IMG/VR virus record: IMGVR_UViG_3300025151_000265
Coordinates: 1-25,667 of that record
Source of the DNA: a virus
Direction: 5' to 3' (one strand)
Length of the DNA: 25,667 nt
Every line of letters starts with the position of its first letter. Within the stretch, counting starts at the first letter, position 1. The notes under the pieces are model-generated. The model saw only the letters and a program-made list of their open reading frames with translations. It was not told where the DNA came from and did not search any database. Both the position numbers and the translations under genes were made by a program. Positions 5 through 19,789 of the stretch are shown here, one piece after another.

Positions 5-304
5 ATGACATGGAACTATTACGAAGATTCGACAATTAGCAAATTCAGAGTACCTAACAAGAATTCTAAGATTGTACGGGAAGGAGAAACTACCGGTCCG
101 TCAGTTAAGGAATCTGTGCTGAAGGTAATTCCACCGAGTTACAACATAGATAAGTTTGCCGTGTTGGTAGCAGATATTTTAAACGAAGAATATGGCGAGC
201 ATAATTTCGATTCTTTTATGGAAATATTACATGATAAAATTGCATATGAGGCTCCAAAAAAGAAACAGCCTAAGAAAAGAAGTGCATTTACAGCGAGGGA
301 TTAA
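5..304 (+). CDS. Small protein with variant N-terminal W tag (MTWNYYEDS)
   Basis: 99 aa, function not recognised. It opens with MTWNYYEDSTISKF, related to the MTW-D/N-YY form of the tag found again on three genes near 19.1-19.8 kb. The middle (residues about 50-80) is a mixed acidic and hydrophobic stretch that could be helical. The C terminus is strongly basic (KKKQPKKR), suggesting contact with nucleic acid or an acidic partner. A stop codon lies at positions 1-3, so the start is the first available ATG, but the upstream ribosome-binding site is outside the window. The next gene starts one base after the stop, and its Shine-Dalgarno (GCGAGGG) lies in this gene's 3' end. No membrane segment or signal peptide is visible. 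The tag assignment is weaker than for the MSWxxILK genes. Confidence 0.75.
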   Translation: MTWNYYEDSTISKFRVPNKNSKIVREGETTGPSVKESVLKVIPPSYNIDKFAVLVADILNEEYGEHNFDSFMEILHDKIAYEAPKKKQPKKRSAFTARD

Positions 305-305
305 T

Positions 306-575
306 ATGACATGGAAAGATGAGATAAAGAAAGAAATAGATGATAGGGAAAACTATAATTTAATCGCTATTAATGAGGCTATTCAAATAGCGATGAGAAC
401 TAATAAAATGATTAGAAATTCTAAATCTTCTGAAATAAGTAAAGCAGACAGAAACCTTCTTGAAGGCAGTAGTGTTGAATTAAAGAGGGCTAAGGCTAGG
501 CTTGATAAAATGATGAGGCTTCCTTCTAAAGAACCAATTACTGAAACAAGGGCTGACCCTGAATATAGAGATTAG
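306..575 (+). CDS. Small charged helical protein with N-terminal tag (MTWKDEIKKE)
   Basis: 89 aa, no family recognised. The ATG at 306 is chosen over an in-frame ATG at 192 because it follows the GCGAGGG ribosome-binding site, avoids a long overlap with the preceding gene, and gives a product starting MTWKDEIKKE, a variant of the tag with Glu at the position normally Ile. The rest is Lys/Glu/Arg-rich and probably helical (NEAIQIAMRTNKMIRN, then a repeated KRAKARLDKMM stretch). It is soluble, with no Cys pairs or membrane segments. It sits in a run of tagged small genes that appear co-transcribed. Confidence 0.75.
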   Translation: MTWKDEIKKEIDDRENYNLIAINEAIQIAMRTNKMIRNSKSSEISKADRNLLEGSSVELKRAKARLDKMMRLPSKEPITETRADPEYRD

Positions 576-583
576 TGATTAAT

Positions 584-751
584 ATGACACGCTGTAATTA
601 TTTAGAAGGCTGGTTCGATAATGAATCTGCTAAATTAGACAAAGTTGAGAATAACTATGGCCGTGATTTAATTACAGGTCAAAAGAAAAAGACTACTACT
701 TTAACTAAGGCACAAGCATGGGCTAAAGTATTCAGGAGGAATAAAGAATGA
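584..751 (+). CDS. 55-aa basic protein with possible C-terminal tag (AWAKVFRR)
   Basis: Short gene read directly from the sequence: ATG at 584, stop TGA at 749-751, overlapping the next start codon by ATGA. The product begins MTRCNYLEGWFDN and ends KAQAWAKVFRRNKE. The ending fits W-x-x-V-[LF]-[KR], the C-terminal form of the tag also seen at 9610 and 11862. The AGG AGG Arg codons of this tail also serve as the Shine-Dalgarno of the following gene, so part of the tail may be fixed by translation signals rather than protein function. Upstream GTGATTA is a weak ribosome-binding site. Coding is supported by the tight spacing on both sides and matching codon style. Function unknown. Confidence 0.6.
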   Translation: MTRCNYLEGWFDNESAKLDKVENNYGRDLITGQKKKTTTLTKAQAWAKVFRRNKE

Positions 752-1020
752 GTTGGCAAGATATACTAAAGGGTTCAGATAATGAACGGAATATAAGTGC
801 AGATTCTTTTAGAGAATACGGTTCAAAGGCTTCAAAGGAAAACCCTACATCTGCAAAAGATGATATTTCAACCCGTTCTTCTGAATTACAAACGGGCGCA
901 CGAACATATCAACAAGGTATTGATAAATTAGGAAAGTTATTTTCTAAAGGAAAAATAGACGAGAAGAGATATACAGAACTTCGTAGAGAATTAATGGAAA
1001 TATTTGGAAAGGAGGAATAA
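748..1020 (+). CDS. Tagged small protein (MSWQDILK) with SHOCT-like tail
   Basis: 90 aa. Residues 1-8 are the canonical tag MSWQDILK. A polar, Ser/Asp-rich linker follows (about 9-50), then a compact C-terminal segment, YQQGIDKLGKLFSKGKIDEK and RELMEIFGKEE. This resembles the short SHOCT type of helical hairpin (hydrophobic-x-x-L-x-x-L-x-x-x-G-x-I-x-x-x-x-[FY]) found at the ends of many small proteins; the resemblance is my own reading, not a search. The start is fixed by AGGAGGAATAAAGAATG. The same ribosome-binding-site-plus-tag sequence recurs before the next gene. The design (tag, flexible linker, small domain) suggests a cargo protein whose N terminus acts as an address. Function otherwise unknown. 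Confidence 0.8.
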   Translation: MSWQDILKGSDNERNISADSFREYGSKASKENPTSAKDDISTRSSELQTGARTYQQGIDKLGKLFSKGKIDEKRYTELRRELMEIFGKEE

Positions 1021-1023
1021 AGA

Positions 1024-1542: not shown

Positions 1543-1543
1543 A

Positions 1544-1909
1544 ATGGGTTGGGAAGATGTACTAAAGGTGCTTACACCTAGAATGTTTTTAGAAAATATT
1601 CAGAACATAATAGGAGGAGAAATTACCGGTACTAGTAGTAGGGGTTCAGATAAATATACTTTACATTCTGACAAAGGAAAGATAACTGTTGCTAGAAAGG
1701 GTTCATCAGAATATAATGTTAGTTCCGGATTCTTTAACGAAAATTCTTATAATCTAACTACACTACTTCCTAGGCTTCTAGATTCTCTTAATGGGGAAAT
1801 GGAAAAAATGCCCGGAGCAGTAGTTACAAGTAGTGCGGCGCATACACCTCTCTTTAGCGAAGGCAGAATGGGAGGTCGAAGAAATGCCAAGGATGAAGAA
1901 AAAGACTAA
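1544..1909 (+). CDS. Tagged small protein (MGWEDVLK)
   Basis: 121 aa. The N terminus MGWEDVLKVLTP is the tag with Gly at position 2 and Val in the Ile position. Residues 25-65 (GGEITGTSSRGSDKYTLHS, then KGKITVARKGS) look like a small beta-rich unit, followed by a Leu-rich helix (LTTLLPRLLDSLNGEMEKM) and a basic/acidic tail. Its 3' end overlaps the following gene by 26 bases, and the downstream ribosome-binding site GGAGGT is inside its last codons. The ribosome-binding site for this gene is GATAAGGTGATG, close upstream. Family not recognised. Confidence 0.78.
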   Translation: MGWEDVLKVLTPRMFLENIQNIIGGEITGTSSRGSDKYTLHSDKGKITVARKGSSEYNVSSGFFNENSYNLTTLLPRLLDSLNGEMEKMPGAVVTSSAAHTPLFSEGRMGGRRNAKDEEKD

Positions 1910-3107
1910 GACCAAGAACGGCAATACTGCTGAACAGGAATTGAAGTCTACTAACTTTTTCAAAGAGTTTCAGGAATGGAAGGAATTAGAAGGGGTAGGT
2001 TTTATTCTAAGACACGGAATCAAGGCCCCTAATACTGTTACAAGAAGAACAGGCATGGAAACAGTCGAAGGTTCTTCTAGAGGACACCGTGACCATTTGC
2101 CAAGACTTATGGAAATTATGGACTATGATGATTTCATAGGAGATAAAGAAATAGAGTACATTGAAGCCTATGTGAAATTTATTGATGCGGCAAAGGGGAC
2201 TAAGGCAGACCCCGCCATGATACCTTACCATACTAATATTTACGACAAAGCAGGAAAACTAGTCGGTAAGAAAAAAGTCTACGGGCATTGGAAAACTGCG
2301 GAGTTTGTAAAATATAGTAAGAAGTTTAAAGGCGACTCTCCGGTTCCTTCCTCTTGGTATAGTTACGATATAAATAAACCACCCACTCCTCCACCCCATC
2401 AGGTAATATATTCTAAACAGAACCCAAAGGGATTGAAATATATTTTAGAAGATGCACTTGAGGAATTGGGAGATGCAGACCTTAAATTTGAAATTACTAG
2501 AGTTTCTAATCCTAAAGAATTGTATAAGTTGTCTCAGGTTAAGCAATTCTTAGAAAGCCAATTAACTCCGGCTTTAGTTAAAGAGGGAGTAATTAATGCT
2601 AAGGCTATTGCTGGAAAATTAGCAAGTCAAAAGTTTGGAGTTACCGGCGAAGCAGAAGAAGCAATCGTTAGAAGATTAAGCGGTTTTTCTGAAGAAGAAG
2701 TTGCTGGAGATGTAGAGGAATTTACTATTAAGGTTTCAGCCACAGTTGTAGAAAGAGCCTATCTTGCTTCTACTAAGAAGAAGGTAGGGGGATTCTATCT
2801 ACATGGTAAGGTCTTGGACAAGAGGCCTAGAAAGGAAGGAGTACCGGTTGCTAAATCTTGGGAGGATTGGTTGAAGGTGGATAAATCTCCTGTTGCAATG
2901 TTTAATAGGTTGGCAGAAAATCTAAAACAAGAAGTAAGAAACTTAGTGAACACAGGAATGAGTCTTAATGATGCGGTTCTAAGAGTCTATAAGAAAATGA
3001 CAAAAAAGCCAAAATCTGAAACTAAACCTAAACCTTTTGCTAGTCCGAAACGGCCAACACCTTTGCGTGGACAGTCTGATAATAGTGATAGGAGAACTAG
3101 ATTTTAA
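1884..3107 (+). CDS. 407-aa protein of unknown function with internal tag-like motif
   Basis: The ATG at 1884 (MPRMKKKTKTKNG) follows GGAGGT with 7-base spacing; an earlier in-frame ATG at 1833 lacks such a site. No family recognised. The N terminus is basic, and the middle has a Pro-rich loop (KPPTPPPHQ, around residue 155). Residues 324-332 read AKSWEDWLK, an exact match to the tag core W-x-x-[IVLW]-L-K, 82 residues from the C terminus and immediately after a Lys/Arg-rich segment. The tail from about residue 370 is basic and Pro-rich (KKPKSETKPKPFASPKRP). It is the only protein here with the strict motif inside the chain; cleavage near it would release the C-terminal piece with the motif at its N-side. 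It is followed 11 bases later by the TerS candidate. It could be a virion structural or internal protein. Confidence 0.8.
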   Translation: MPRMKKKTKTKNGNTAEQELKSTNFFKEFQEWKELEGVGFILRHGIKAPNTVTRRTGMETVEGSSRGHRDHLPRLMEIMDYDDFIGDKEIEYIEAYVKFIDAAKGTKADPAMIPYHTNIYDKAGKLVGKKKVYGHWKTAEFVKYSKKFKGDSPVPSSWYSYDINKPPTPPPHQVIYSKQNPKGLKYILEDALEELGDADLKFEITRVSNPKELYKLSQVKQFLESQLTPALVKEGVINAKAIAGKLASQKFGVTGEAEEAIVRRLSGFSEEEVAGDVEEFTIKVSATVVERAYLASTKKKVGGFYLHGKVLDKRPRKEGVPVAKSWEDWLKVDKSPVAMFNRLAENLKQEVRNLVNTGMSLNDAVLRVYKKMTKKPKSETKPKPFASPKRPTPLRGQSDNSDRRTRF

Positions 3108-3118
3108 GAGGTGAGTAA

Positions 3119-3778: not shown

Positions 3779-3990
3779 GCGATATTAGTAAGAGATACCC
3801 GATGAAGCAAAATCGAAAGAAAAAACTAACAAGAGAAAAAGTATTTGAACGCGTTAGAGAACTAAAAGCAGGTATTAAAATGATTAAATTACTCCAACGA
3901 AAAGACCCTGCTTATCGTAATAAAGAAATAAATAAATTTCTTGATGTTTTAGAAGACTCAATTAAAGAAATGCAGGAGCAATTACAATGA
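3775..3990 (+). CDS. Small basic helical protein, untagged
   Basis: 71 aa beginning MSDISKRYPMKQNRKKKL. The ATG at 3775 overlaps the previous stop (ATGA) and is preceded by AGGAGGAATTACA; an in-frame ATG at 3736 inside the TerS gene is not supported. The product is basic at the N terminus, then helical (REKVFERVRELKAGIKMI and a second helix near the C terminus). No W tag. Its last codons (MQEQLQ) resemble those of the preceding gene (MQEELQ), because both encode the Shine-Dalgarno of the next gene. Function unknown; the size and charge would suit a DNA-binding or bridging protein. Confidence 0.75.
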   Translation: MSDISKRYPMKQNRKKKLTREKVFERVRELKAGIKMIKLLQRKDPAYRNKEINKFLDVLEDSIKEMQEQLQ

Positions 3991-4232
3991 GTTGGGAAAA
4001 TATAATAAAAGCAAAAAAATATCCGAATGTGGAGAGGATGATAGATTATCAAATTTCAAACCATTCAAAAAAACCCATGTCAAGTATTCCTAAATTAGTG
4101 AGTGAAGCAATTAAATTATTTGGAGAAGAATTGGAACAAGATATAGAAGACTCGTTTATTGATGATATTTCATATCCGGAGAACCATACGCCAAGACATA
4201 AAAAATTCAACAATTGGGTAGAAACACTTTGA
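3987..4232 (+). CDS. Tagged small protein (MSWENIIK)
   Basis: 81 aa. The tag MSWENIIK has Ile in place of the usual Leu. The remainder is a mixed helical domain (SIPKLVSEAIKLFGEELEQD) with an acidic patch and ends NNWVETL. The start overlaps the previous stop and has the recurrent upstream sequence AGGAGCAATTACA. A potential helix-breaking stretch (YPENHTPRHKK) precedes the C-terminal Trp. No known family recognised. Confidence 0.8.
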   Translation: MSWENIIKAKKYPNVERMIDYQISNHSKKPMSSIPKLVSEAIKLFGEELEQDIEDSFIDDISYPENHTPRHKKFNNWVETL

Positions 4233-9085: not shown

Positions 9086-9610
9086 ATGGCTGAAAAAATA
9101 ACTGCTGGTGAAATTACTTTTGAACAAATGTCAGAAGAACAAGCGGTGAAAACTTTCCAAGAAGATGGCTATTTTGAGTACAATAAAAGAAGGGTGAGGT
9201 ATGGAGATTCTTTACCACCTAATTCTATTTGGGCTACTATCCCCGCTACTATGTTTGTTGCTTTTTACAAAGGTACTCCAGTAGGAATTGTAGGTTTTTC
9301 TAGATATAAGGGAGTTTTACTAGGGGCTGGAGTTCATACTAGAAGAGAGTATAGAGGAAGAGGATTGTTAGATATTTTAATAGATAAGGCAATAAAGGAA
9401 AAGCGTTCTAGGACACTTTATATCAATATTGCTAATCCGAGAATAGCGAATAATTATAGGGCAAAGGGATTCAAAGACATGAATAAAGATGAGTTGCCGG
9501 AAGATGTTAAGCAAGAATTAGGCGATATTAGATACACTGACCAAGTTCAAAAACTACTAAGTCATTTTTCCCCTAAGTGGCAACAAGTTCTTAAAAGAAG
9601 GAGAGGTTAA
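9086..9610 (+). CDS. GNAT-family N-acetyltransferase with C-terminal W tag
   Basis: 174 aa. GNAT enzymes transfer the acetyl group of acetyl-CoA to an amine. The acetyl-CoA-binding motif A is clear: GAGVHTRREYRGRGLLDIL (residues about 80-98), with the R-x-x-G-x-G-type loop (YRGRGL) after a beta strand. The following strand and helix (TLYINIANPRIANNYRAKGF, 110-129) carry the usual Asn/Tyr and an aromatic-Gly-Phe turn. Length is normal for a single GNAT domain. The extra C terminus, SPKWQQVLKRRRG, matches W-x-x-V-L-K and mirrors the N-terminal tag of neighbours. Substrate unknown; a capsid, packaged or host protein are all possible. The start follows AGGTGAGGGC. The stop is one base from the next tagged gene. 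Confidence 0.85.
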   Translation: MAEKITAGEITFEQMSEEQAVKTFQEDGYFEYNKRRVRYGDSLPPNSIWATIPATMFVAFYKGTPVGIVGFSRYKGVLLGAGVHTRREYRGRGLLDILIDKAIKEKRSRTLYINIANPRIANNYRAKGFKDMNKDELPEDVKQELGDIRYTDQVQKLLSHFSPKWQQVLKRRRG

Positions 9611-9611
9611 A

Positions 9612-9977
9612 ATGAATTGGAAAAACATATTAAAAGCAGATTGTGGGACAACAGAAAAGATTCTGTATGGCAATCAAAAGAAACTAGACAGAAACAAAAA
9701 CAATAAAATAGATTCAGAAGATTTTAAACATCTACGGGCGAATAAGTCTGAAGGTGCAGAAGAAACAATAGTTTCTACTTTGGAAAAGGAAGGAGGGGCT
9801 TCGGGTCTAGAACCACTAGAAGAAGCAACTAAGATGTCCGGAGAAGAATTAGAAGGGCTGTTGAACTCTATGGAAAATGTTGTTCAGCATAAGAGTGGAG
9901 ATTATATTCTTTTAGATGGGCTACCGCTTCCTGAAGAAGAGGAAGAAGAGGAAGAAGAGGATGAGCAAGATGAGTAA
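9612..9977 (+). CDS. Tagged EF-hand-like protein (MNWKNILK) with poly-Glu tail
   Basis: 121 aa. The tag is MNWKNILK. Residues 26-37 (DRNKNNKIDSED) fit an EF-hand Ca-binding loop: D at 1, N at 3, N at 5, Ile at 8 and D at 12, flanked by KKL and FKHL helical ends. Position 6 is Asn instead of Gly, and position 12 is Asp instead of the usual Glu. A Gly/Glu/Leu-rich segment follows, and the protein ends in a run of Glu with Asp (residues about 109-121). The strongly acidic tail could mimic DNA or bind cations. The ribosome-binding site is GGAGAGG before 9612. The last codons overlap the next gene by 8 bases. Confidence 0.8.
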   Translation: MNWKNILKADCGTTEKILYGNQKKLDRNKNNKIDSEDFKHLRANKSEGAEETIVSTLEKEGGASGLEPLEEATKMSGEELEGLLNSMENVVQHKSGDYILLDGLPLPEEEEEEEEEDEQDE

Positions 9978-10197
9978 TTGGAAAAATATTCTGAAAATGA
10001 ATCCTAGTCTAGTAGTAGACCAAATCGGAGAACATAAAGATATTTTAGCAGATATTGAAGAAACTATAAGATTATATTCAGATAATAAAATGATGGACAG
10101 AGAAGGAATTGTAAAATTGTTCGATGATTATAATGTTTCTCACCACCAAATCCATAATGCCTTAAAAGTAATTATAGAAAAGATAACGAGGTCTTGA
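9970..10197 (+). CDS. Tagged small acidic protein (MSNWKNILK)
   Basis: 75 aa. I take the ATG at 9970 (MSNWKNILKMNPS); an in-frame ATG at 9961 would add MSK and is less well placed relative to the GAAGAGG upstream. The tag has one extra residue (Asn) before Trp. The rest is acidic and helical (QIGEHKDILADIEETIRLYS, then HHQIHNALKVIIEKITRS). The gene starts inside the poly-Glu coding end of its neighbour, so a Glu-rich (GAA/GAG) tail doubles as ribosome-binding site. Family not recognised. Confidence 0.78.
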   Translation: MSNWKNILKMNPSLVVDQIGEHKDILADIEETIRLYSDNKMMDREGIVKLFDDYNVSHHQIHNALKVIIEKITRS

Positions 10198-10198: not shown

Positions 10199-10573
10199 AT
10201 GTCTTGGCAAGATATTCTTAAAGTAAAGGCTACTGCTACTCATAACAGTAAAGGTGAGAAAAAGGATTCTTGCGAATTATCTGCTGATGAATCCTATGGA
10301 ATGAAAAGTTCAGCATATAGGTCAGGAAATATTACCCAATGCAGAAAGAAAAAAGGGATTAAAAAAGCCAATGACGGATTACATCAATGGTTTAACAGAA
10401 GAGGCGGAGATGGTCAGAAAGGCTGGGTTTCCTGTCAATCATGTGAAGATGATAAGAAAGGGACAAAACCTTGTGGAAGACAAGATGCTTCTAAAGGAAC
10501 TAAACAAAGATGTAGGCCGACTTGTTCTGCATGTAAAGACTATCCAAGAAGAAAAGGGAGGAAAGGAAGATGA
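10199..10573 (+). CDS. Tagged Cys-rich basic protein resembling the DUF5872 family (MSWQDILK)
   Basis: 124 aa. The tag MSWQDILKVKATA precedes a low-complexity linker. A Cys-rich, strongly basic domain follows: GLHQWFNRRGGDGQKGWVSC (about residues 60-79), then SCEDDKKG, PCGR and QRCRPTCSACKDYPRR. The W-F-x-R-x-G-G-x-G-x-x-x-G-W-V-x-C and P-C-G-R ... C-R-P-T-x-x-x-C pattern matches my memory of DUF5872, a small domain known from viruses and some cells; this was not checked by search. The Cys set could bind zinc, and the basic tail suggests nucleic-acid binding. As I recall the domain occurs without such a tag elsewhere, which would make this a tag-plus-domain fusion. Start preceded by GAGGTCTTGAT. 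Confidence 0.8.
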   Translation: MSWQDILKVKATATHNSKGEKKDSCELSADESYGMKSSAYRSGNITQCRKKKGIKKANDGLHQWFNRRGGDGQKGWVSCQSCEDDKKGTKPCGRQDASKGTKQRCRPTCSACKDYPRRKGRKGR

Positions 10574-10977
10574 ATGATTGGCAAATCTTATTGAAGCAAT
10601 TAACTTGCCCTCCGGCAACTAAGAATCTCAAACTTAATACCAAGAATAGAGATGCCGCTATCAAAGATGAAGATATAAAATACGGTCCTTTGAATATAGA
10701 TGAACCTGCTGATTATTGGGAGAAGGTAGCGGAACATTGGGACACATCCGTTGAAGCCGCTAAGAAATCTAAATGTTCTAATTGTATTGCTTTTGATATT
10801 AGTCCAAGGATGAAAGATTGTATGCCTATCGTAGATGTAAAAGGTGGATTAGGATATTGTTGGATGCACGATTTCAAGTGTCACGAAGATAGAACCTGTT
10901 ACACTTGGGCCAAGGGTGGTCCTATTAAAGACGATAAGAAGTCTAAGAAAAATCAACTGAAGAGGGAAGAATCATGA
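10570..10977 (+). CDS. Tagged Cys-cluster protein (MNDWQILLK)
   Basis: 135 aa. The tag is MNDWQILLKQ (W-x-x-L-L-K, with an extra residue before Trp). The C-terminal half carries six Cys: CSNC at about residues 73-76, C at 88, then GYCWMHDFKCHEDRTCYTWA with three more (about 95-114), with nearby His. The spacing suggests a metal site (Zn or Fe-S). I have an impression of similar small C-x-x-C ... YC ... F-x-C-H-x-x-R-T-C-x-x-W proteins in marine viruses, but could not check it. The protein ends in a basic tail (KKSKKNQLKREE). Its start overlaps the preceding stop by four bases and is preceded by GGGAGGAAAGG. Confidence 0.78.
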   Translation: MNDWQILLKQLTCPPATKNLKLNTKNRDAAIKDEDIKYGPLNIDEPADYWEKVAEHWDTSVEAAKKSKCSNCIAFDISPRMKDCMPIVDVKGGLGYCWMHDFKCHEDRTCYTWAKGGPIKDDKKSKKNQLKREES

Positions 10978-11303
10978 GTTGGAAAGAAGTTCTAAAAATA
11001 GATGAGATAGATATTCAATCTTCTATCAACATGGCTAGAAAATACTTAGATGAAATAGAGGAATATGTTTCGTATTATTATGGTGCTGGCTACTCTCCGG
11101 ATTTTGACGATGAGGGGGAGGCTGATGCTTTTCAAGACCAAACCTACAAAGATATTGAAACCATGAATAAATTATTCAAAAATCCTACTAAAGAAAATTT
11201 AGAAAAAATAGAAACGATGTCGAATAGGTTAGCCCAAGATATTGAATTTGAACATAGCCCATTAGAAATAATTCCTTCTTTTGATATTCAGTATAGGGAG
11301 TGA
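10974..11303 (+). CDS. Tagged acidic small protein (MSWKEVLK)
   Basis: 109 aa starting MSWKEVLKIDEIDIQSS (tag with Val). The body is acidic, with Tyr-rich and Asp/Glu-rich stretches (EEYVSYYYGAGYSPDFDDEG, residues about 31-50) and two helices towards the C terminus. It overlaps the previous gene by ATGA and is preceded by GAGGGAAGA. No family recognised. Confidence 0.78.
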   Translation: MSWKEVLKIDEIDIQSSINMARKYLDEIEEYVSYYYGAGYSPDFDDEGEADAFQDQTYKDIETMNKLFKNPTKENLEKIETMSNRLAQDIEFEHSPLEIIPSFDIQYRE

Positions 11304-11661: not shown

Positions 11662-11862
11662 ATGCCATTTAAGTCTTTAGAGCAAGCCTACTTCTTGTAT
11701 AATTACAAGCGAGTCGTATTTAATCAAATTGCTGGAGTATATGGCGTTCCGTTTCTTTGGCACGAATACAGAGACTTGAGAGATAGAGGTATTACTGCTA
11801 AAGATGCAGACAAGATGATTCATGACCCAAGATTAAAAAAGTGGCAAAGGGTGTTGAAATAA
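11662..11862 (+). CDS. 66-aa protein with C-terminal W tag (KWQRVLK)
   Basis: 66 aa. MPFKSLEQAYFLYNYKRVVF leads into a Gly/Val/Tyr-rich part and ends DPRLKKWQRVLK, where the last six residues are exactly W-x-x-V-L-K. Unlike most tagged genes it lacks the motif at the start. The first 50 residues (aromatic, Tyr-rich, with AGVYGVPFLWHEYRDL) look like a small helical domain. Its stop overlaps the terminase start (TAATG), which suggests translational coupling with the packaging motor. Ribosome-binding site: AAGGGGAGTT. Function unknown. Confidence 0.75.
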   Translation: MPFKSLEQAYFLYNYKRVVFNQIAGVYGVPFLWHEYRDLRDRGITAKDADKMIHDPRLKKWQRVLK

Positions 11863-13316
11863 TGGAAATTGAAGCATTTAATCTAGAACATCAGATGGAT
11901 TTCGAACTATCTAGAAACTCCTTCCCTTATTTCTTTCAACATGTTTGTGGCCCTGCTATGGGAATTGACCAATACTTCTATCCCCATTATATGGAAGAGT
12001 GGTTAGAATTAATGAATAGCACTCAGCGCACAGTTTTAATTTGTAGTCGTGACCACGGAAAATCTGTATTCATGCACTGTTGGGTAATATGGAATTTAGT
12101 TTTTCAACCTAAAGGCTACCAAATGCTTTACATCTCTTCTAACCAAAAGCAGACTCTAGTACACATGCGAGAGATTGATAAATACTTTAGCCACCCAATG
12201 CTACAAAAATTCAAACCTATTAGGGGCTGGTCAGTAGGACATATCCGATTAACTAACGGCAATGAATTACTAGCAAGGTCTGTAGGCTCACAGATTCGTG
12301 GACTTCACCCAAATGAAATAGTTATTGACGACCCTCTGAAAGAATTCTCAATGTCTGCTATACAGAAAGTCACTGATTGGTTTTACAGCGATATGATTCC
12401 TACTCTTCACCATTCTGCATCCCTAAGAGTAATCGGTACTCCATTTAGTTATACAGATATTTATGCTCAACTTGCAGAGAATGAAGTCTATGAAGTTAGA
12501 ACCTATCCCTGCTTAAATGCACTTAACGAACCGCTTTGGCCCGATAGATGGGATTACAATTCCCTAATGTTAAGAAAGGGAGAGATTGGTACAATTGCAT
12601 TCACTAGAGAATATCTTTGTGTTCCTATGTCTACAGGTACTTCTCTCTTTAACCCTGAGTACTTAGATAATGCTAAGTCAAAGGACTACATACTAAAACC
12701 ACATAGAAGAAAGGACTTCAGATATTATGTAGGTGTGGACCCTGCTATTTCTACTGATGGAGACTACAATGTTATTACTGTATTAGAAGTAGACGAAAAC
12801 GATAATAAAACTGTAGTTTTTGTTGATAGGGCTAAGAATGTAGAGTTTAGGCAGAACATAGAGAAGGTGAAGATGATAGGTAAAATTTTCAATCCTGAAG
12901 TAGTTTTATTCGAAACCAATACCTTCGCAAAATCATTTACTCAAGAATTAAAACATGTATCTGATATTAATGTCCACGACTTCACAACTACTAGAAAGAA
13001 AAAGCAAGAGATTATTCTTAACCTACAAATGAATTTCGAGAATGGTAAGATGATACTCCCTTATGGCAATGAAGAAAGTAGGCGAGTTACTTCTACTTTG
13101 ATAGAAGAATTGTCCATGTTTGCTATTACTGAAGGGGGCAAGTTTGAAGGCATAGGGGCGCACGACGACATGGTAATGAGTTTAGCCTTGGCCAATGCCG
13201 CCACTTATACTATGAGCGAGAAGTTTATTCATTTAGATGACTTGGGCATATTTGATGATAGGCCAACTGCACCTAAACCCTTTGCTGGAAAAGGCATTAT
13301 GGGGCTAAACTTTTGA
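11862..13316 (+). CDS. terL: Terminase large subunit (packaging ATPase/nuclease)
   Basis: 484 aa; pumps DNA into the prohead and cuts the concatemer. Walker A CSRDHGKS is at residues 61-68, Walker B IVIDDP at 153-158, and a coupling-type motif IGTP at 191-194. The C-terminal RNase H-like nuclease has its acidic residues in GVDPA (D293), LFETN (E351) and AHDD (D435/D436), in the expected order. Length is typical. The ATG at 11862 overlaps the upstream stop (TAATG); an ATG at 11841 lies inside the previous gene and is not needed. The protein lacks the W tag, as expected for a motor that acts outside the capsid and leaves after packaging. ILK occurs at about residues 277-279 but without the W context. 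Confidence 0.95.
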   Translation: MEIEAFNLEHQMDFELSRNSFPYFFQHVCGPAMGIDQYFYPHYMEEWLELMNSTQRTVLICSRDHGKSVFMHCWVIWNLVFQPKGYQMLYISSNQKQTLVHMREIDKYFSHPMLQKFKPIRGWSVGHIRLTNGNELLARSVGSQIRGLHPNEIVIDDPLKEFSMSAIQKVTDWFYSDMIPTLHHSASLRVIGTPFSYTDIYAQLAENEVYEVRTYPCLNALNEPLWPDRWDYNSLMLRKGEIGTIAFTREYLCVPMSTGTSLFNPEYLDNAKSKDYILKPHRRKDFRYYVGVDPAISTDGDYNVITVLEVDENDNKTVVFVDRAKNVEFRQNIEKVKMIGKIFNPEVVLFETNTFAKSFTQELKHVSDINVHDFTTTRKKKQEIILNLQMNFENGKMILPYGNEESRRVTSTLIEELSMFAITEGGKFEGIGAHDDMVMSLALANAATYTMSEKFIHLDDLGIFDDRPTAPKPFAGKGIMGLNF

Positions 13317-13325: not shown

Positions 13326-14681
13326 ATGGCAACTCCGGATGAAAAAAGAGAAGCGGCCCAAAGACTAGAACAGGTGGCCGATTTAGAAGAAGAGGCTGAA
13401 GATGCTAAATCTGAAATTGAGCAATCCCTAGATATTAAACTAACTAGTTTTATTCAAGGGTTGAGCATAGTAGATGAATCTGAAGCCATTACCAAAATAA
13501 GTCAAGAGTTTAGAATCAATGCTTCCCAAGCAAGAAAACACTTAGATGTTTTTCCTGATAAATATTTAGTTCAAGATACCTATGTCCCTGATATTATCAA
13601 GACTATGCGTAGAGAAAGAAGAAAATTAAAGGGAGAATATAGGACTAAGATGACCAAAGCCATTGATACATTAATTGATGGATATTCTGACCACTTGGAT
13701 AAGTGCGTCAATAGCATTTATTGGCTCAGGCCATACAAACCCGCACTACAACAAATGCGCTATACCGAAGGCGACCTTCTAAAAATCCACGGAATTAAAG
13801 ATATAGAAAATAGAAGAAGTATGATTGATTCTATTTGTAAATATTGGGAAGCGCAGTTAGAACAGAAAGGGATGGTTTATGGCAAGGAATATTCTTCATT
13901 GCAAAAGACTATGAATACTGCTAAGAGAGAATTTAGAAAGCAGGTTAATGACCTATCTAAAATCCGTAAGACTGTAAAAGAAGAAACCAATGATTTTATT
14001 CTAAAGGCGGTTTGTAATCAGCAAGGAATTAGTGCAAGAGAAATTTTAGATAGTATGCCTACTAGACTCTATAAAAGGAATACAATGAAAATAATTCCCC
14101 AACTTATTAAGAAGTTAGACATAACTGATGTTGATGGTTCATATTATAAATTAGATAATGAAATTAAAAAGAACATCTATGCTTATACTGCGGCCTTTAT
14201 TGATTCTGATGGCTACATTACAGTAGATAGGAATATGAATCCTAGGGTTGGTTTGGTTGCTACTGGAGATAGAGGTAAGGCTTTTATGCTTGAGATTCAT
14301 AAAGCATTAGGAATTGGCCGACTACACTTAGACCAAAAATCTCCACAAAATACTAGACCTGTCAATAGGCTAAATTTTTACTCTCAGGCAGATGTTGGGG
14401 AATTATTGACTAAGTGCCTACCCCATTTTAGAATGAAGGGTAAAAATGCAGAATTGCTTTTAGAACTAATTCGTATGAAAAAATCCTACAAGAAGGCCGA
14501 TTGGTATAGGGACAGATGTGATGAAATTTTCAAACTAATGAAGTATGAAAACCATAAAGACCATGTTGGTTTTGATTTTACCAAAGACGGTATAGATATA
14601 GAAACTGTAGCAAAGTTACATGATAATTGTAAGATGAGTGTAATGGATGAAATGGAAAATATAGGTACTTTGGTGGTTTGA
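13326..14681 (+). CDS. LAGLIDADG-type endonuclease domain fused to a helical/HTH N-terminal region
   Basis: 451 aa. Residues about 287-302 (YTAAFIDSDGYITVDR) are a LAGLIDADG-like motif (A-F-I-D-S-D-G-Y), followed by a beta-strand pattern and a helix (AFMLEIHKALGIGRLHLDQK, then ADVGELLTKCLPHFRMKGKN) as in single-motif homing endonucleases, which dimerise and cut long sites. The first 280 residues are not part of the usual enzyme. They hold a helix-turn-helix-like stretch (AITKISQEFRINASQARKHL, about 55-74) and a second winged-helix-like segment before the nuclease (DFILKAVCNQQGISAREILD). It sits between TerL and portal, where tailed viruses often carry an HNH nuclease needed for packaging. It may be a packaging-associated nuclease or a mobile homing gene. 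Ribosome-binding site GAGGTGATATT. Confidence 0.8.
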   Translation: MATPDEKREAAQRLEQVADLEEEAEDAKSEIEQSLDIKLTSFIQGLSIVDESEAITKISQEFRINASQARKHLDVFPDKYLVQDTYVPDIIKTMRRERRKLKGEYRTKMTKAIDTLIDGYSDHLDKCVNSIYWLRPYKPALQQMRYTEGDLLKIHGIKDIENRRSMIDSICKYWEAQLEQKGMVYGKEYSSLQKTMNTAKREFRKQVNDLSKIRKTVKEETNDFILKAVCNQQGISAREILDSMPTRLYKRNTMKIIPQLIKKLDITDVDGSYYKLDNEIKKNIYAYTAAFIDSDGYITVDRNMNPRVGLVATGDRGKAFMLEIHKALGIGRLHLDQKSPQNTRPVNRLNFYSQADVGELLTKCLPHFRMKGKNAELLLELIRMKKSYKKADWYRDRCDEIFKLMKYENHKDHVGFDFTKDGIDIETVAKLHDNCKMSVMDEMENIGTLVV

Positions 14682-14840: not shown

Positions 14841-16481
14841 ATGGCGGGAAAGCGAAGATTCTCTTTAACAAATTTATTTAGGAAGACTACTCCTACTCCT
14901 ACGGATAGGGAAATCTACAATATTGGCATACAGGAAAAGTCCCCTGCACAAATGCTAAACGGGCCACTAATCTACAATATAGTACAAAACTCTGTAATTA
15001 CTAGAACCTGTTTAACTCAATTAAAACAGGAAGTATTTCGTAGAGGATATACTTGGGAGAAAGCATACGAAGCAAGATGTCAAGATTGTGGCAAGGAACA
15101 CCAAAGGCCCGTTAAGGAATGCTCTAGATGTGAAAGCACTAATTTGAAACTTCCTGATGTTAAGCAATTAGAGTATGCAGAGAAGTTTTTAGAAGGATAT
15201 GTTAATTCTTCAGAGCAATTGTTTATTGATGTGTTAAAGGAATTAGAAGATGATTTGAATATCATGGATGATGCCTACATTGTATTCGTAAAGGAATATT
15301 ATATTGATGGTAATGGTAAAATCCGAATGCACAGAATAAAGGAAATTTTTAGAGGCGACCCTGTATCAATGCACATCTATGCAGATGAAGAAGGAGTAAG
15401 AGGGACTAAAGGATTTACATGTATTCACCATAGAGAATTTATGGCTTCGGAACCTCATGATAGTTGTGAAGTTTGTGGGGATTCTCTTTACCCTGTTCAC
15501 TATGTAAATAGGGCAAAGGGAGATGACCAATACTTTATCAAGGGAGAAGTCTTACACTTTAGTAAATATAGTCCTAGTAGATTATATGGGCTTTCTCCTA
15601 TACTCACTTTATACAATCATATTATGACACTTATTGCTATGGAAAATTATGTTAATGCTTCCTATACTAAGAGCAGAATGCCTAGAGGAATGTTAGCCGT
15701 CCAAACTAGAAATATGGACTCCATGATGAGTTTTTGGCGTGGGGTTAAAGAAAGGATGGAGCAAGACCCCCACTACATTCCTGTAATGGGAATAGAAGCA
15801 GAAGGTGGCAAGGGTTCTATTGAATGGATTAAGTTTATGGATAGTCTGAAAGAGATGGAATATACTGCGGTCAAGGACGATTTAAGAGATAGGGTTTCTG
15901 CCTTTTATGGAGTTAGTAAAATTTTCATGGCAGATTCTACTGCTAGTGGAGGACTAAATAATGAAGGTATGCAGATTCTTGTAACTAATCGAGCAGTACA
16001 AATGGCGCAAACAGTCTACAACAATTATGTATTCCCATTCTTAACTACTCAGTTTGGAATTACTGATTGGGATTTGAAACTACCGCCGTCAGAAGAAGAA
16101 GATGAAATTGCCGCTCTCCGTAAAAGAGAGATAGAAGTTAATATTGCCGCCTCTACTAAGAATTTAGGATTTGAGATTGAAATGGATGAAGATGGAAACT
16201 TTACCTTTACTAAACCCGAACCCAAAGAAAATGAAATGGGAGCAGAGGGTGGAGATGAGCCGGTGGAATTAGACCCTTATGCTGGAACTAATATTGATGC
16301 GTCACAGATGGGACAGATGATGGAACAACAGCAACAAAGCATGGCCAGCACTAACGAAAATGTTAAATCAACTAGAAATAAGCCAAGTATGGCCACAGGG
16401 CCGGATAAAAGGTTTAGTGGCCTACCAGCCGAAGCCGGAAATCAAAATGTAGACCAAAGAACAGAAAGAAGGGTTGGTTAA
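14841..16481 (+). CDS. Portal protein with two Zn-binding insertions
   Basis: 546 aa. Forms the dodecameric vertex through which DNA enters. Portal features include the N-terminal half with VITRTCLTQLKQEVFRRGYT, the segment GEVLHFSKYSPSRLYGLSPI (235-254) and a helical part (LTLYNHIMTLIAMENYVNAS). GVSKIFMADSTASGGLNNEG (about 353-372) belongs to the conserved C-half. Inserted Cys pairs C80/C83 with C94/C97 form a probable zinc ribbon; C194/H196 or H197 with C209/C212 a second one. The C terminus from about residue 470 is low complexity (MGQMMEQQQQSM). The gene is 26 bases after the zinc miniprotein, with weak ribosome-binding site GGATAGGGTG. The N terminus (MAGKRRFSLTNLFRKTT) carries NLFRK, only loosely like the tag. 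Confidence 0.9.
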   Translation: MAGKRRFSLTNLFRKTTPTPTDREIYNIGIQEKSPAQMLNGPLIYNIVQNSVITRTCLTQLKQEVFRRGYTWEKAYEARCQDCGKEHQRPVKECSRCESTNLKLPDVKQLEYAEKFLEGYVNSSEQLFIDVLKELEDDLNIMDDAYIVFVKEYYIDGNGKIRMHRIKEIFRGDPVSMHIYADEEGVRGTKGFTCIHHREFMASEPHDSCEVCGDSLYPVHYVNRAKGDDQYFIKGEVLHFSKYSPSRLYGLSPILTLYNHIMTLIAMENYVNASYTKSRMPRGMLAVQTRNMDSMMSFWRGVKERMEQDPHYIPVMGIEAEGGKGSIEWIKFMDSLKEMEYTAVKDDLRDRVSAFYGVSKIFMADSTASGGLNNEGMQILVTNRAVQMAQTVYNNYVFPFLTTQFGITDWDLKLPPSEEEDEIAALRKREIEVNIAASTKNLGFEIEMDEDGNFTFTKPEPKENEMGAEGGDEPVELDPYAGTNIDASQMGQMMEQQQQSMASTNENVKSTRNKPSMATGPDKRFSGLPAEAGNQNVDQRTERRVG

Positions 16482-16534: not shown

Positions 16535-16553
16535 GAAATTTAAGGTGATTAAA

Positions 16554-16778: not shown

Positions 16779-16788
16779 AGGTGGTATT

Positions 16789-18540
16789 GTGGTCGTTCTA
16801 AAGCAAGATAAATATTTAGAGTCGGCGCAGACCGCAAAGGAAAAGGCAGAAGAAGAATATCTTAAAACTCAAAATGCTAACTATAGAACATTTGTTCAAG
16901 CCCTAAAGATTTTAGAGAAAATGAAAAAGGATAAGACCTTTGAGGCTAGAAGTAAAAGACTGGGTAAATTGATTTCTGCTATTAGAGGGGCAGGTTCTCC
17001 CGAAGTAAAATTAGAAAAAATACTATTTAGTTTTAGAAAATTAAAAGAACGAGACTATATAGTAGCAGACATAAAAGATGCCGAAAATAAAAAGATAAGT
17101 GCAGAAGATGTTCAGTCAAGAATGAAGTCTGCCTTATTTGACGAAGAAGTAAAATCTACAGCACACGCTTCTATTTTTACAATTAATCAACCTATGGAAG
17201 AAGTACAAAAAAATAAAGCGTTAGATGTCTTAACAGAATATTTTAATCCCCCTCCTACTATAGAATACGAAGAAGTAGTTACTGAAGAGGAAAAGGTTTC
17301 TAAAATCGCAGTAATAACTCTAGATGATACAGATGTAGATAACATAACTGAATATATGAATGATGCGTTTGGGGAGAACTTGACAGACCTTACCGAACAA
17401 GACCATGAAATAAAAACCAATCTATATGAGATATTATTAGAATTATATGTTGATTCGTTTGGGGAATATCCTACCTTTTATGTTAAAAGTGGAAACATTG
17501 CTGGCTATCTCAAAAATTTAAAAAGTCAAGTTTTTAGAGAATTGCAACGCCGTTCCGGTGGAAAGAAGGATTCTTCTGAACGCACATCAAGTATGATTAT
17601 TTCTAAAGATAGTTTAGATAGAGCCTTTAATGGTATTGAAGGAGAAATACAACTACTAAATGAAAGGAAAAAGGAATTGAGTAAGCAATTAGAGAAACAT
17701 GTAGATATTGATATAGAAAAAGAAATAGTGAACTACCAAAATAAAATTGAAAACGAAATTTCAGAAATAAAACCAGAATTGAAAGAACTTAAGGAACGGT
17801 TTGATTCCGTTAAAACTAAGTTAAAATCATTAAAAGAAAAGGAAAGTTCTCTTGGGCAATTAACCGCAACAGAATATGTAGAAGGTAAAAAAGAATTGGA
17901 CCCCGAAATTAAAGAGGCTAATAAAATACTAAATATTATAATTAGAGAGGGAGACAAGGTAAAAAACAAATTAGCGATTCTAGAAAAAGCGGATTCTACT
18001 AGCATCAGAAGTACAATAGAAAGTGGTCTGATGGAGGAGCATCAGGCACAGGTAGATAACATAAAGGAACTAAACCAAAGAATAATTAGATTGAAACAGG
18101 AGATAACTTTACCTAAACCTGTAAAGAAAGAAATTAGAAAAATTATTAGAAGATTCGACCCAAGTAAGGAATTAGAGGGAGAAATGTATAGGGAATACAT
18201 AACCGCTCTTAATACATATGAGCGGATTTTAATGAGAGTAGGTAGGAAGATAGATTTGGAAATAACTCAAATGAAATCCTACATAAAGAAAAATTCTGAT
18301 GCTTTGCAGAATACTGCGGATTATTTCATAGGTTTAACTGAAAAGGAGTTTTCAGTGGAGAATCTAGATGAATTCGAAGACTTCGAAATAGTTCTAGCAA
18401 TGAATAAGCATAGTTTAACTGATTCGGATATGTCCGAATTGCAAACGGATATTATAGAAGCACTCAAACTAAGAAGAAAGGTTATCAAACTAACTGAGGT
18501 AGCAAAAGAAAAGGCGAAACAAAAGAGGGATGCAAAATGA
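16789..18540 (+). CDS. 583-aa coiled-coil protein, unknown
   Basis: GTG start (MVVLKQDKYLESAQ) with GAAGGTGG just upstream. No other start is better placed, and the previous gene ends at 16778. The protein is Lys/Glu-rich with long helical segments and a clear coiled-coil region (about residues 280-445; for example LLNERKKELSKQLEKHVDID and SEIKPELKELKERFDSVKTK). No Cys motif or W tag. It follows the portal and precedes a tagged gene. Possible roles are an internal scaffold or a tether, but no family is recognised. It overlaps the next gene by four bases (ATGA). Confidence 0.75.
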   Translation: MVVLKQDKYLESAQTAKEKAEEEYLKTQNANYRTFVQALKILEKMKKDKTFEARSKRLGKLISAIRGAGSPEVKLEKILFSFRKLKERDYIVADIKDAENKKISAEDVQSRMKSALFDEEVKSTAHASIFTINQPMEEVQKNKALDVLTEYFNPPPTIEYEEVVTEEEKVSKIAVITLDDTDVDNITEYMNDAFGENLTDLTEQDHEIKTNLYEILLELYVDSFGEYPTFYVKSGNIAGYLKNLKSQVFRELQRRSGGKKDSSERTSSMIISKDSLDRAFNGIEGEIQLLNERKKELSKQLEKHVDIDIEKEIVNYQNKIENEISEIKPELKELKERFDSVKTKLKSLKEKESSLGQLTATEYVEGKKELDPEIKEANKILNIIIREGDKVKNKLAILEKADSTSIRSTIESGLMEEHQAQVDNIKELNQRIIRLKQEITLPKPVKKEIRKIIRRFDPSKELEGEMYREYITALNTYERILMRVGRKIDLEITQMKSYIKKNSDALQNTADYFIGLTEKEFSVENLDEFEDFEIVLAMNKHSLTDSDMSELQTDIIEALKLRRKVIKLTEVAKEKAKQKRDAK

Positions 18541-18878
18541 CTTGGAATTGGTATAATGAAGATATTATTAAAGCCGAAGGAGATATTCTTTCGGCTTTGG
18601 ATAAGAAGCAAAAAAAGGCACTTAAGAAAACTCTGCAAGCCGCAGAACCAACAGAATATTTTGGACAGGATTTTACTAGATTGGGTGAGTTATTAGATAT
18701 GATGAAGGACTTGGATTTGATTAAATCTGATGAAAAATTATCTAAGAAGATGGAGACTATGGATGAGAGCAATCTAGATATATTAGCCACAGCCAGCAAA
18801 CTCCGTAAAGAGTACGAAACCCTCTACAGGCAGATTCGAAAATTAGTATATCCAAAGAAAGGAGGCGACTTAAGATGA
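18537..18878 (+). CDS. Tagged small helical protein (MTWNWYNEDIIKAE)
   Basis: 113 aa. The N terminus MTWNWYNEDIIKAEGD is a longer tag variant with DIIK in place of DILK. The remainder is a charged helical protein (ALDKKQKKALKKTLQAAEPT and further helices to the end). It starts on the previous stop (ATGA) and ends over the next start, within a block of coupled genes. The ribosome-binding site is AAAAGAGGGATGCAAA. Family not recognised. Confidence 0.75.
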   Translation: MTWNWYNEDIIKAEGDILSALDKKQKKALKKTLQAAEPTEYFGQDFTRLGELLDMMKDLDLIKSDEKLSKKMETMDESNLDILATASKLRKEYETLYRQIRKLVYPKKGGDLR

Positions 18879-19105
18879 CAGAACAAAACGAAGTATTACT
18901 CTTGCTAAAAGAATTAGTGAACCGAGTACAACAATTAGAAAGCGTAGCATACAATAAGGACAATGTTCTGATGAAATCAGGATTTGTCGTAACTAATAGC
19001 CCAACACCGTCAATGAATAATAAGATTGCATCTACCTTTAGTATGGATGATATAAGCGCAATGTCATTCGATGATATGGCTAAGATTATTCAGAAGATGG
19101 AGTGA
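18875..19105 (+). CDS. 76-aa scaffold-like protein whose C terminus matches the scaffold tail
   Basis: Begins MTEQNEVLLLLKELVNRVQQ, an amphipathic helix that could form a coiled coil. A flexible Ser/Pro/Asn segment follows, and the end is SMDDISAMSFDDMAKIIQKM-E (residues 56-76). The scaffold domain downstream ends SMDDVANMSWADLNRLAGN (23926-23979). The two tails share S-M-D-D-[IV]-x-x-M-S-[FW]-x-D-[LM]. This suggests that both contact the capsid protein by the same C-terminal helix, as known for scaffolds of several tailed phages, where a short C-terminal helix binds the coat protein. It overlaps the previous stop and is preceded by AAAGGAGGCGACTTAAG. Most likely a small accessory scaffold or head-assembly protein. 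Confidence 0.7.
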   Translation: MTEQNEVLLLLKELVNRVQQLESVAYNKDNVLMKSGFVVTNSPTPSMNNKIASTFSMDDISAMSFDDMAKIIQKME

Positions 19106-19110
19106 TTTAG

Positions 19111-19380
19111 ATGACTTGGGATTACTACGATATTAAAAAAGTAGAAATTAAAAAGGGAGATGACTACGATATGACTATGACGGTATCATGCGAGTTAGAA
19201 AAGGATGGAGAAACTATTCTTCCTGAAGATATTGGATTAAGTGAGAGAGAACTGCATTCTACTGTTCAAGATGTTTTACAGGAATTAGTTGGTAGGAAAG
19301 CCTCTTCTGCTATAGAAGATGAAGAGGGAAGCGAAATAGTAATAGATGTAGAAATCAAATCTGTTTCAGAAAATAGGTGA
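19111..19380 (+). CDS. Tagged small protein (MTWDYYDIKK), copy 1
   Basis: 89 aa. Starts MTWDYYDIKKVEIKKGDDYD, first of three consecutive proteins sharing MTWDYY[DN]IKK. The body contains two likely beta strands (MTMTVSCELEKDGETILPED), an acidic helix and a further strand near the C terminus. There is no obvious similarity to the next two proteins beyond the tag, so this looks like different domains with a common address. Ribosome-binding site TGGAGTGATTTAG. Confidence 0.8.
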   Translation: MTWDYYDIKKVEIKKGDDYDMTMTVSCELEKDGETILPEDIGLSERELHSTVQDVLQELVGRKASSAIEDEEGSEIVIDVEIKSVSENR

Positions 19381-19385
19381 GTAAA

Positions 19386-19586
19386 ATGACTTGGGATTAT
19401 TACGATATTAAGAAAAATTTTGAGTTTGTTGAAGGTCAGTTTAAAGACGAAACAGAGACTACAGATGCAGTTCTAGAGTTTAAGAAAGGGGCTATGAAGA
19501 TGTTGAAAGAGTTAAGCATAGATGCCGCCAACCTATCAAAAGCAAAGAAACTATTTGGTAAATTTTTAGATGAGGTGAAAGAATGA
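19386..19586 (+). CDS. Tagged small protein (MTWDYYDIKK), copy 2
   Basis: 66 aa. ATG 19386; an in-frame GTG at 19377 lies in the ribosome-binding site GGTGAGTAAA and is rejected. MTWDYYDIKKNFEFVEGQF continues into a charged helix (FKKGAMKMLKELSIDAANLS) and ends GKFLDEVKE. Beyond the tag it does not resemble its neighbours. It overlaps the next gene by ATGA. Confidence 0.78.
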   Translation: MTWDYYDIKKNFEFVEGQFKDETETTDAVLEFKKGAMKMLKELSIDAANLSKAKKLFGKFLDEVKE

Positions 19587-19789
19587 CTTGGGATTATTAC
19601 AACATTAAAAAATCAGAAGATAGGCCATTTAGGATTTCAAGAATAATGGGAGATGTTTGGAATACTATGCAAGTCGAATTACAAAGCCCTGCATTTGAAG
19701 ATAAGGCAAAAGAAGTAAGAAAGGCTCTGCAAGTATTGCATAGAGAATTAAAAGATGCACAAGAACGAATAGAAAAGGAGTATGAGTAA
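19583..19789 (+). CDS. Tagged small protein (MTWDYYNIKK), copy 3
   Basis: 68 aa. MTWDYYNIKKSEDRPF then a helical rest (RIMGDVWNTMQVELQSPAFE, and a charged helix of Lys/Glu/Arg at the end). Tag identical to the two upstream copies except Asn for Asp at position 7. Codons differ between the three copies (for example AAA/AAG and TAC/TAT), so they are not fresh duplicates. Ribosome-binding site GAGGTGAAAG. Family not recognised. Confidence 0.78.
   Translation: MTWDYYNIKKSEDRPFRISRIMGDVWNTMQVELQSPAFEDKAKEVRKALQVLHRELKDAQERIEKEYE

What the first reader, a model, noticed from the sequence alone, without database searches (positions are those of the whole stretch)
5..19789. A recurring N-terminal peptide tag, M-x-W-x-x-[IVL]-L-K, on about nineteen unrelated proteins
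Starts at 306, 748, 1024, 1544, 3987, 4246, 4454, 4796, 9612, 9970, 10199, 10570, 10974 and 11308 give MSWKDILK-like termini; 5, 18537, 19111, 19386 and 19583 give MTW..Y variants. The proteins differ in size (63 to 660 aa), charge and domain content beyond the first 8-12 residues, so the shared part is a module. No signal-peptide or membrane character is seen. All lie in the head/packaging region. TerL and portal lack the strict motif, and MCP has only its DILK half, internally. I infer a capsid-targeting sequence, like the N-terminal signal that sends T4 internal proteins into the prohead. The motif itself is seen; the function is inference.
Basis: partly seen in the sequence, partly recalled or inferred. 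Interest (0 to 1): 0.93.

Follow-up and report, generated by a model that had tools for sequence, protein, structure and literature searches.

The report
Archaeal virus capsid-cargo address tag
Viruses that appear to infect abundant marine archaea put the same eight-residue address label (M-x-W-x-x-I-L-K) on a dozen or more otherwise unrelated proteins per genome, and the sequence evidence says the label most likely loads these proteins into the forming virus head, to be clipped there and probably injected into the next host cell.

Summary
Thirteen late genes of the window begin with the strict tag (W within the first five residues, then x-x-[IVL]-[LI]-K), and six more carry spaced or altered versions. 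Shuffled proteins give about none. In 11 related 80-95 kb genomes, 158 of 747 late-strand genes carry the strict tag against 1 of 763 on the replication strand. With the window, the 170 tagged proteins fall into 105 non-homologous groups. Tags sit upstream of the capsid gene (146/429) and are almost absent from the tail side (1/181). Untagged homologues of cargo domains occur in bacteriophages. The second half of the tag, [IVL]-L-K, recurs as the only invariant Lys in a variable stretch of the major capsid protein and at three conserved places in the S78 protease-scaffold; these look like maturation cleavage sites, as in HK97 (K103/S104). The first half, M-x-W-x-[DE]-[IL], recurs at the C-termini of the scaffold and of a small putative core protein. 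Tags also occur at C-termini and inside proteins. Best reading: a two-part capsid-targeting sequence that works like T4's CTS, with a docking half and a cleavage half, in probable magroviruses. Packaging, docking and cutting are inferred; no virion data exist.

The parts
306..575 (+). variant tag MTWKDEIKK on an 89-aa protein
   Evidence: MTWKDEI[KR]K recurs on several late genes of relatives
5..304 (+). variant tag MTWNYY.. on a 99-aa protein
748..1020 (+). tag MSWQDILK, 90 aa
1024..1542 (+). tag MSWKNILK, 172 aa with RQTSLxEFGN and KP repeats
1544..1909 (+). tag MGWEDVLK, 121 aa
2856..2876 (+). inner copy KSWEDWLK in the 1833-3107 protein; homologues carry the motif at their extreme C-terminus (e.g. 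KSWLELLKDF*, KSWQEVIRA*)
3987..4232 (+). tag MSWENIIK, 81 aa
4246..4437 (+). tag MSWKNILK, 63 aa
4454..4783 (+). tag MSWKDILK, 109 aa
4796..6778 (+). tag MSFMWTELLK, 660 aa
9578..9595 (+). C-terminal copy KWQQVLK of the GNAT acetyltransferase 9086-9610
9612..9977 (+). tag MNWKNILK, EF-hand-like protein with acidic tail (family tagged in 9 of 12 genomes)
9970..10197 (+). tag MSNWKNILK, 75 aa
10199..10573 (+). tag MSWQDILK, 124-aa Cys-rich basic protein; Flavobacterium phage homologue lacks the tag
10570..10977 (+). tag MNDWQILLK; homologue in an actinobacterial phage lacks the tag
10974..11303 (+). tag MSWKEVLK, 109 aa
11308..11661 (+). tag MSWQTILK, 117-aa basic protein; Roseobacter phage CRP-13 homologue (63% identity) starts after the tag
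11842..11859 (+). C-terminal copy KKWQRVLK* of the 66-aa protein 11662-11862
18537..18878 (+). spaced tag MTWNWYNEDIIK; orthologues have MTWEDILK, MWELILK or MTWDYYDTGKEFILK
18875..19105 (+). small putative core protein; C-terminus MSFDDMAKI here, M[DS]W[SDE][DE][IL] in relatives, resembling the tag's first half
19111..19380 (+). variant tag MTWDYYDIKK
19386..19586 (+). variant tag MTWDYYDIKK
19583..19789 (+). variant tag MTWDYYNIKK
22807..23982 (+). S78 prohead protease fused to a helical scaffold (proposed processing enzyme and core)
22837..22851 (+). proposed cleavage site 1, FQILK; Lys invariant in 35 relatives
23296..23310 (+). proposed cleavage site 2, FDILK, at the protease/scaffold junction; Phe and Lys invariant
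23878..23892 (+). proposed cleavage site 3, SEILK, between the scaffold helix and the C-terminal docking segment
23944..23970 (+). scaffold C-terminus MSWADLNRL (relatives MDWSDIHKM, MSWDEIHxL); Trp invariant; proposed docking segment that the tag resembles
24071..24082 (+). DILK in the major capsid protein N-arm; K29 is the only invariant residue between 17 and 62

Best explanation
The tag is a capsid-targeting sequence made of two joined short linear motifs. The first half (M-x-W-x-[DNE]-[IV]) is a docking motif like that at the C-terminus of the virus's own scaffold; it would tether each tagged protein to the partner the scaffold uses (most likely the inner face of the major capsid protein, or the core), so that the protein is enclosed in the prohead. 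The second half ([DNE]-[IV]-[LI]-K) is the recognition site of the S78 prohead protease, which would cut after the Lys in the capsid protein arm, in its own chain and in the tags during maturation, freeing the cargo to lie with the packaged genome and probably to be ejected into the host. Shown: the tag, its distribution, its modularity, the conserved matching sites and the protease fold. Inferred: docking, cutting, packaging and ejection.
For: (1) Real and modular: 170 tagged proteins in 12 genomes form 105 non-homologous clusters; only M, W and K are invariant in 98 representatives. (2) Confined to late genes (158/747 vs 1/763, p ~ 5e-51) and to the capsid side of that strand: 146/429 within 30 kb upstream of MCP vs 1/181 at least 5 kb downstream, the tail side. 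(3) Second half matches head sites: MCP has exactly one [ILV]-[LMS]-K in its N-terminal region in 83/83 distinct sequences, and this Lys is the only invariant residue between 17 and 62; the protease-scaffold has three such sites, at its N-terminus, at the protease/scaffold junction and before its C-terminal segment, in disordered or inter-domain places of the model. HK97's MCP cleavage is at K103/S104 in an unstructured stretch (PMC10275583). (4) First half matches the scaffold and small core protein C-termini (scaffold Trp invariant); of 3141 non-N-terminal Trp sites scored by a tag profile without the LK part, the 12 scaffold C-termini rank 6-69. (5) The two halves separate in orthologues: MTWEDILK, MTWNWYNEDIIK and MTWDYYDTGKEFILK on one gene family. 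(6) C-terminal copies lack a strict Lys, as docking without cutting predicts. (7) Homologues of three cargo domains in bacteriophages lack the tag. (8) The protease model matches T4 gp21, the enzyme that cuts T4's CTS. (9) In T4 the targeting residues (4, 7) and processing residues (8, 10) of the 10-residue CTS are likewise separate (PMC9026906).
Against: No proteomics or binding data; the hosts are uncultivated as far as known. The P1' residue is Q/A/S/G in MCP but unrestricted in tags, so not every tag need be cut. MTW-YY variants lack a clear I-L-K. The scaffold C-terminus shares only W-x-[DE]-[IL] with the tag, so the resemblance could be coincidence of a short motif; in the window itself the small core protein has Phe instead of Trp. 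The MCP model was too poor (pLDDT 54) to place the site. About a tenth of genes just downstream of MCP are tagged, some of unknown role.
Confidence: 0.74

Rival explanations
1. The tag is only a substrate site for the prohead protease (or only a docking peptide), so one half has no role of its own.
For: I-L-K alone matches the MCP and protease-scaffold sites; C-terminal copies such as KKWQRVLK* could not be usefully cut.
Against: The Trp is invariant in tags but absent from the cleavage-like sites, and Trp appears without I-L-K at scaffold C-termini; both halves persist in orthologues with a longer spacer.
Confidence: 0.12
2. The tag binds something else in the infected cell, such as a chaperonin, the host membrane or DNA, rather than the capsid.
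For: A short amphipathic segment with Trp could bind many partners; many cargos are small and basic. [quoted passage not shown]
Against: Tags are confined to the capsid side of the late strand and nearly absent from tail and replication genes; a general chaperone or membrane signal would not match sites in MCP and scaffold.
Confidence: 0.08
3. The repeat is a nucleotide-level signal for late translation or transcription, or a remnant of gene shuffling, with no function as a peptide.
For: Upstream sequences of several tagged genes are also alike (AGGAGGAATTACA before 4246).
Against: All three Ile, all six Leu and both Lys codons are used at the conserved positions, broadly as elsewhere in these genes; copies at C-termini and inside proteins have no start codon; the motif persists across clades whose capsid proteins are only 43-60% identical to the L084 query.
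Confidence: 0.02

Closest known systems
T4 capsid targeting sequence (CTS) of internal proteins IPI-III, cut by gp21 (PMC9026906)
   Same: About 10 N-terminal residues shared by otherwise different small, often basic late proteins; separable targeting and processing halves; the protease belongs to the same fold (gp21 is the best structural match).
   Different: Different sequence and cut residue (Lys proposed here, acidic in T4 by general knowledge); 11-18 strictly tagged proteins per relative genome; also C-terminal and inner copies; a scaffold C-terminus of the same type; in probable archaeal viruses.
P1 DarB N-terminal packaging signal (PMC9024508)
   Same: An N-terminal stretch (30 residues) that suffices to direct a foreign protein to the capsid.
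   Different: Longer, one large protein, no short motif shared by many proteins in the genome in the passages read.
HK97 prohead protease and MCP scaffolding domain (PMC10275583)
   Same: Prohead protease that cuts after Lys (K103/S104) in an unstructured part of the MCP N-arm.
   Different: In HK97 the scaffold is part of MCP and no tagged cargo is described; here the scaffold is fused to the protease.
SPN3US / phiKZ-type ejection proteins (PMC10052503)
   Same: Many internal proteins, some with N-terminal propeptides removed by the prohead protease.
   Different: [quoted passage not shown] no shared eight-residue tag of this kind is described in the passages read.

Membership tests
T4-type capsid targeting sequence (functional class) | short N-terminal peptide shared by unrelated proteins of one virus | tested here: met
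T4-type capsid targeting sequence (functional class) | contains a site matching the prohead protease sites of the virus's own head proteins | tested here: met
   sequence match only; cleavage itself not shown
T4-type capsid targeting sequence (functional class) | sufficient to load a protein into the capsid | not testable with these tools
   needs co-expression or virion proteomics
T4-type capsid targeting sequence (functional class) | peptide removed during maturation | not testable with these tools
   needs mass spectrometry
T4 CTS as a sequence family | sequence homology to the T4 peptide and its cleavage rule | not tested
   no alignment to the T4 peptide was made; the proposed cut residue (Lys) differs from T4's by general knowledge, so it is not filed as a member by descent
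Peptidase S78 prohead protease | S78 domain above the curated cut-off and prohead-protease fold | tested here: met
   PF04586 38.1 bits vs cut-off 21; Foldseek to T4 gp21 E 4e-4
Magrovirales (Poseidoniales tailed viruses) | about 90 kb, morphogenesis and replication modules on opposite strands, PolB, ATP-dependent DNA ligase, MCP related to haloviruses | tested here: met
   relatives; window: ligase, MCP; description in PMC12999244 and PMC10160649
Magrovirales (Poseidoniales tailed viruses) | direct match to a named magrovirus genome, and host | tested here: inconclusive
   the magrovirus reference sought was not in the collections; host not shown

The most novel reading that the evidence does not exclude
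Probable magroviruses run a general protein-export programme through the virion: any late protein becomes cargo by acquiring, at either end or between domains, a peptide that copies the scaffold's own capsid-docking segment fused to the protease site, so that 11-22 diverse proteins per genome (acetyltransferase, zinc-finger, EF-hand, basic and unknown ones) would be delivered into the archaeal host with the DNA, and can be listed from sequence alone.
Probability: 0.5. Interest if true: 0.87.

Novelty: new variant of a known kind. Interest (0 to 1): 0.74.

Why it matters
These viruses appear to infect one of the most abundant groups of surface-ocean archaea, they are known only from metagenomes (PMC12999244), and most of their late proteins have no assigned function. 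If right, an eight-residue label lists which proteins enter the cell with the genome, gives the cleavage specificity and scaffold docking site of their heads, shows that signal-directed internal proteins are not confined to T4- and P1-like phages, and offers a compact cargo-loading peptide that can be tested in a recombinant prohead.

Tried and rejected
Looked for a clade whose MCP site lacks the Lys, to test whether tag and site change together: none of 83 distinct MCP N-terminal regions lacks it and a scan from a further clade returned only loci already held, so co-variation could not be tested. Structure prediction of MCP failed (pLDDT 54). Profiles of MCP and protease found no PDB sequence relatives. 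Pfam and PHROGs name very few of 98 cargo representatives. A nucleotide-level signal was rejected on codon usage and C-terminal copies. HCTV-1, an isolated relative by MCP, has no tagged gene in the two 50 kb stretches read. Paper searches found no report of such a tag in archaeal viruses, but the library holds open-licence papers only, and a key paper on Poseidoniales viruses (PMC11706807) was not held. The fetch of magrovirus_A_01 (OR863078) failed.
Full report
What the window is. The window is a 25.7 kb IMG/VR record. It encodes a terminase (11841-13316), a portal (14841-16481), an ATP-dependent DNA ligase (20253-22766), an S78 prohead protease fused to a scaffold-like part (22807-23982) and a major capsid protein (23996-25360). 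The capsid protein is about 25% identical to those of haloarchaeal tailed viruses such as HCTV-1 and has 575 matching stretches in IMG/VR. Eleven relatives of 80-95 kb (one read to 80.0 of its 80.7 kb; one is 78 kb) have two gene blocks on opposite strands and, in ten of eleven, family-B DNA polymerase. This fits the published description of magroviruses, which are associated with Poseidoniales (PMC12999244, PMC10160649). I could not compare with a named magrovirus genome, so the assignment and the host are probable, not proven.

All 19 starts translate as stated. Ten match M-x-W-x-x-[IVL]-[ILVM]-K exactly and three match with the Trp moved by one or two residues. Six are variants, of which 18537 keeps both halves with a longer spacer. 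A chance model predicts 0.0024 such proteins in the window. In the 12 genomes 170 late proteins match the tag pattern; shuffling their residues gives 0.2 on average.

It is a module. The 170 tagged proteins form 105 clusters with no detectable homology beyond the tag, from 40 to 994 residues long. In an alignment of 98 representatives only the Met, the Trp and the Lys are invariant (Trp and Lys were part of the selection rule, so the point is that nothing else is). Homologues of three tagged proteins occur in bacteriophages without the tag: the Roseobacter phage CRP-13 homologue of the 11308 protein is 63% identical over 84 residues and begins MSVPDRVK instead of MSWQTILKKKPKSARS; likewise for 10570 and 10199. 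The Ile, Leu and Lys of the tag use all their synonymous codons, so the peptide and not the DNA is conserved.

Where tags are. On the late strand of 11 relatives 158 of 747 genes are tagged; on the other strand 1 of 763 (Fisher p about 5e-51). Within the late strand 146 of 429 genes in the 30 kb upstream of the capsid gene are tagged, against 1 of 181 at 5 kb or more downstream, where tail genes are expected from gene order in tailed viruses. The halovirus HCTV-1 has none in the two 50 kb stretches read. A second set of relatives, found with a capsid protein only 47% identical to the window's, also has the tag: 153 plus-strand genes against 1120 plus-strand calls in all, and none of 92 minus-strand calls.

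Second half of the tag: a cleavage-like site. Every one of 83 distinct capsid-protein N-terminal regions has exactly one [ILV]-[LMS]-K, followed by Q, A, S or G. In a 40-sequence alignment its Lys (K29) is the only invariant residue between positions 17 and 62. The protease-scaffold has three conserved sites of the same type: FxI[LI]K before the protease domain, FDILK (FN[IL]IK in some) at the end of the protease domain, and I[LI]K between the long scaffold helix and the C-terminal segment. The Lys of the first two is invariant in 35 sequences; the third varies more in distant relatives. In a moderate-confidence model (mean pLDDT 61) sites 1 and 3 fall in low-confidence stretches and site 2 at the domain end. 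The protease part matches T4 gp21 (Foldseek E 4e-4, probability 1.0). HK97 cuts its capsid protein at K103/S104 in an unstructured stretch (PMC10275583), so cleavage after Lys has a precedent. Cleavage at these sites is my inference.

First half of the tag: a docking-like motif. The scaffold ends in [EAN]M[SDN]W[SADE][DE][IL][HN]xx (for example MSWADLNRL in the window, MDWSDIHKM and MSWDEIHxL in relatives); its Trp is invariant. A small protein encoded a little upstream (18875 in the window) ends the same way in most relatives (KMDWSELDELV, MDWKDIHKM), although in the window the Trp is a Phe. With a profile built from tags but without their Leu-Lys, the 12 scaffold C-termini rank 6 to 69 among 3141 Trp sites outside N-termini. 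The similarity is short, so I treat it as suggestive.

The halves are separable. Orthologues of the 18537 protein begin MTWEDILKEE, MWELILKEE, MTWNWYNEDIIKAE, MTWDYYDTGKEFILKEE or MTWEDMLIKEE: the Trp and the hydrophobic-hydrophobic-Lys are kept while the spacer changes. Tags also occur at C-termini (17 late-strand against 5 opposite-strand proteins by a loose pattern) and between domains. Homologues of the 1833-3107 protein carry it at the very C-terminus (KSWLELLKDF*, KSWQEVIRA*, KSWVDIVRV*), whereas in the window and its nearest relative it lies inside (KSWEDWLK, KSWLDIVK). At C-termini Lys is often Arg or missing, as expected if only docking is needed there.

Mechanism and certainty. I propose that tags dock cargo where the scaffold docks, are enclosed with the core, and are cut after Lys by the S78 protease. 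T4's CTS has the same division: residues 4 and 7 target, 8 and 10 are for processing (PMC9026906). What is shown is the motif, its distribution, its modularity, the conserved sites and the protease fold. What is inferred is docking, cutting, packaging and ejection into the host. The unrestricted residue after the Lys in tags and the lack of I-L-K in MTW-YY variants are unexplained and may mean that some tags are not cut.

Novelty. Capsid-targeting peptides are known from T4 and P1. This differs in sequence, in proposed cut residue, in number (11 to 18 strictly tagged proteins per relative genome, 14 to 22 with variants defined after the fact), in position (N-terminal, C-terminal, inner) and in occurring in probable archaeal viruses. 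I found no report of it, but the paper library is partial. I file it as a new variant of a known kind.

Noticed in passing
20253-22766: An ATP-dependent DNA ligase gene lies inside the head module, between the core genes and the protease, and most relatives encode a homologue (75 hits). Whether it is packaged is unknown; it has no tag.
   Followed up: no
13326-14681: The protein between terminase and portal contains a stretch (AYTAAFIDSDGYITVD...) that by eye resembles a LAGLIDADG homing endonuclease; Pfam does not confirm it.
   Followed up: partly
1024-1542: Tagged protein with three RQTSLxEFGN-like repeats followed by a long KP repeat.
   Followed up: no
G001-G013: Family-B DNA polymerase matches fall in two separate open frames in most relatives (about 540-590 and 300 aa), but in one 1003-aa frame in G013: a split gene, intron or intein is possible.
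   Followed up: no
L082, L083, L084: Contigs of these viruses sit in bacterial MAGs of GTDB (Maricaulis sp. IN14, Altibacter sp. EAC109), probably mis-binned.
   Followed up: no
10570-10977; L211: The 10570 family is annotated as 'high potential iron-sulfur protein' in several phages; in Actinomycetia phage DSL-LC01 its gene is directly upstream of a capsid maturation protease.
   Followed up: partly
9612-9977: Tagged protein with an EF-hand-like calcium site and a poly-Glu tail; its family is tagged in 9 of 12 genomes.
   Followed up: no
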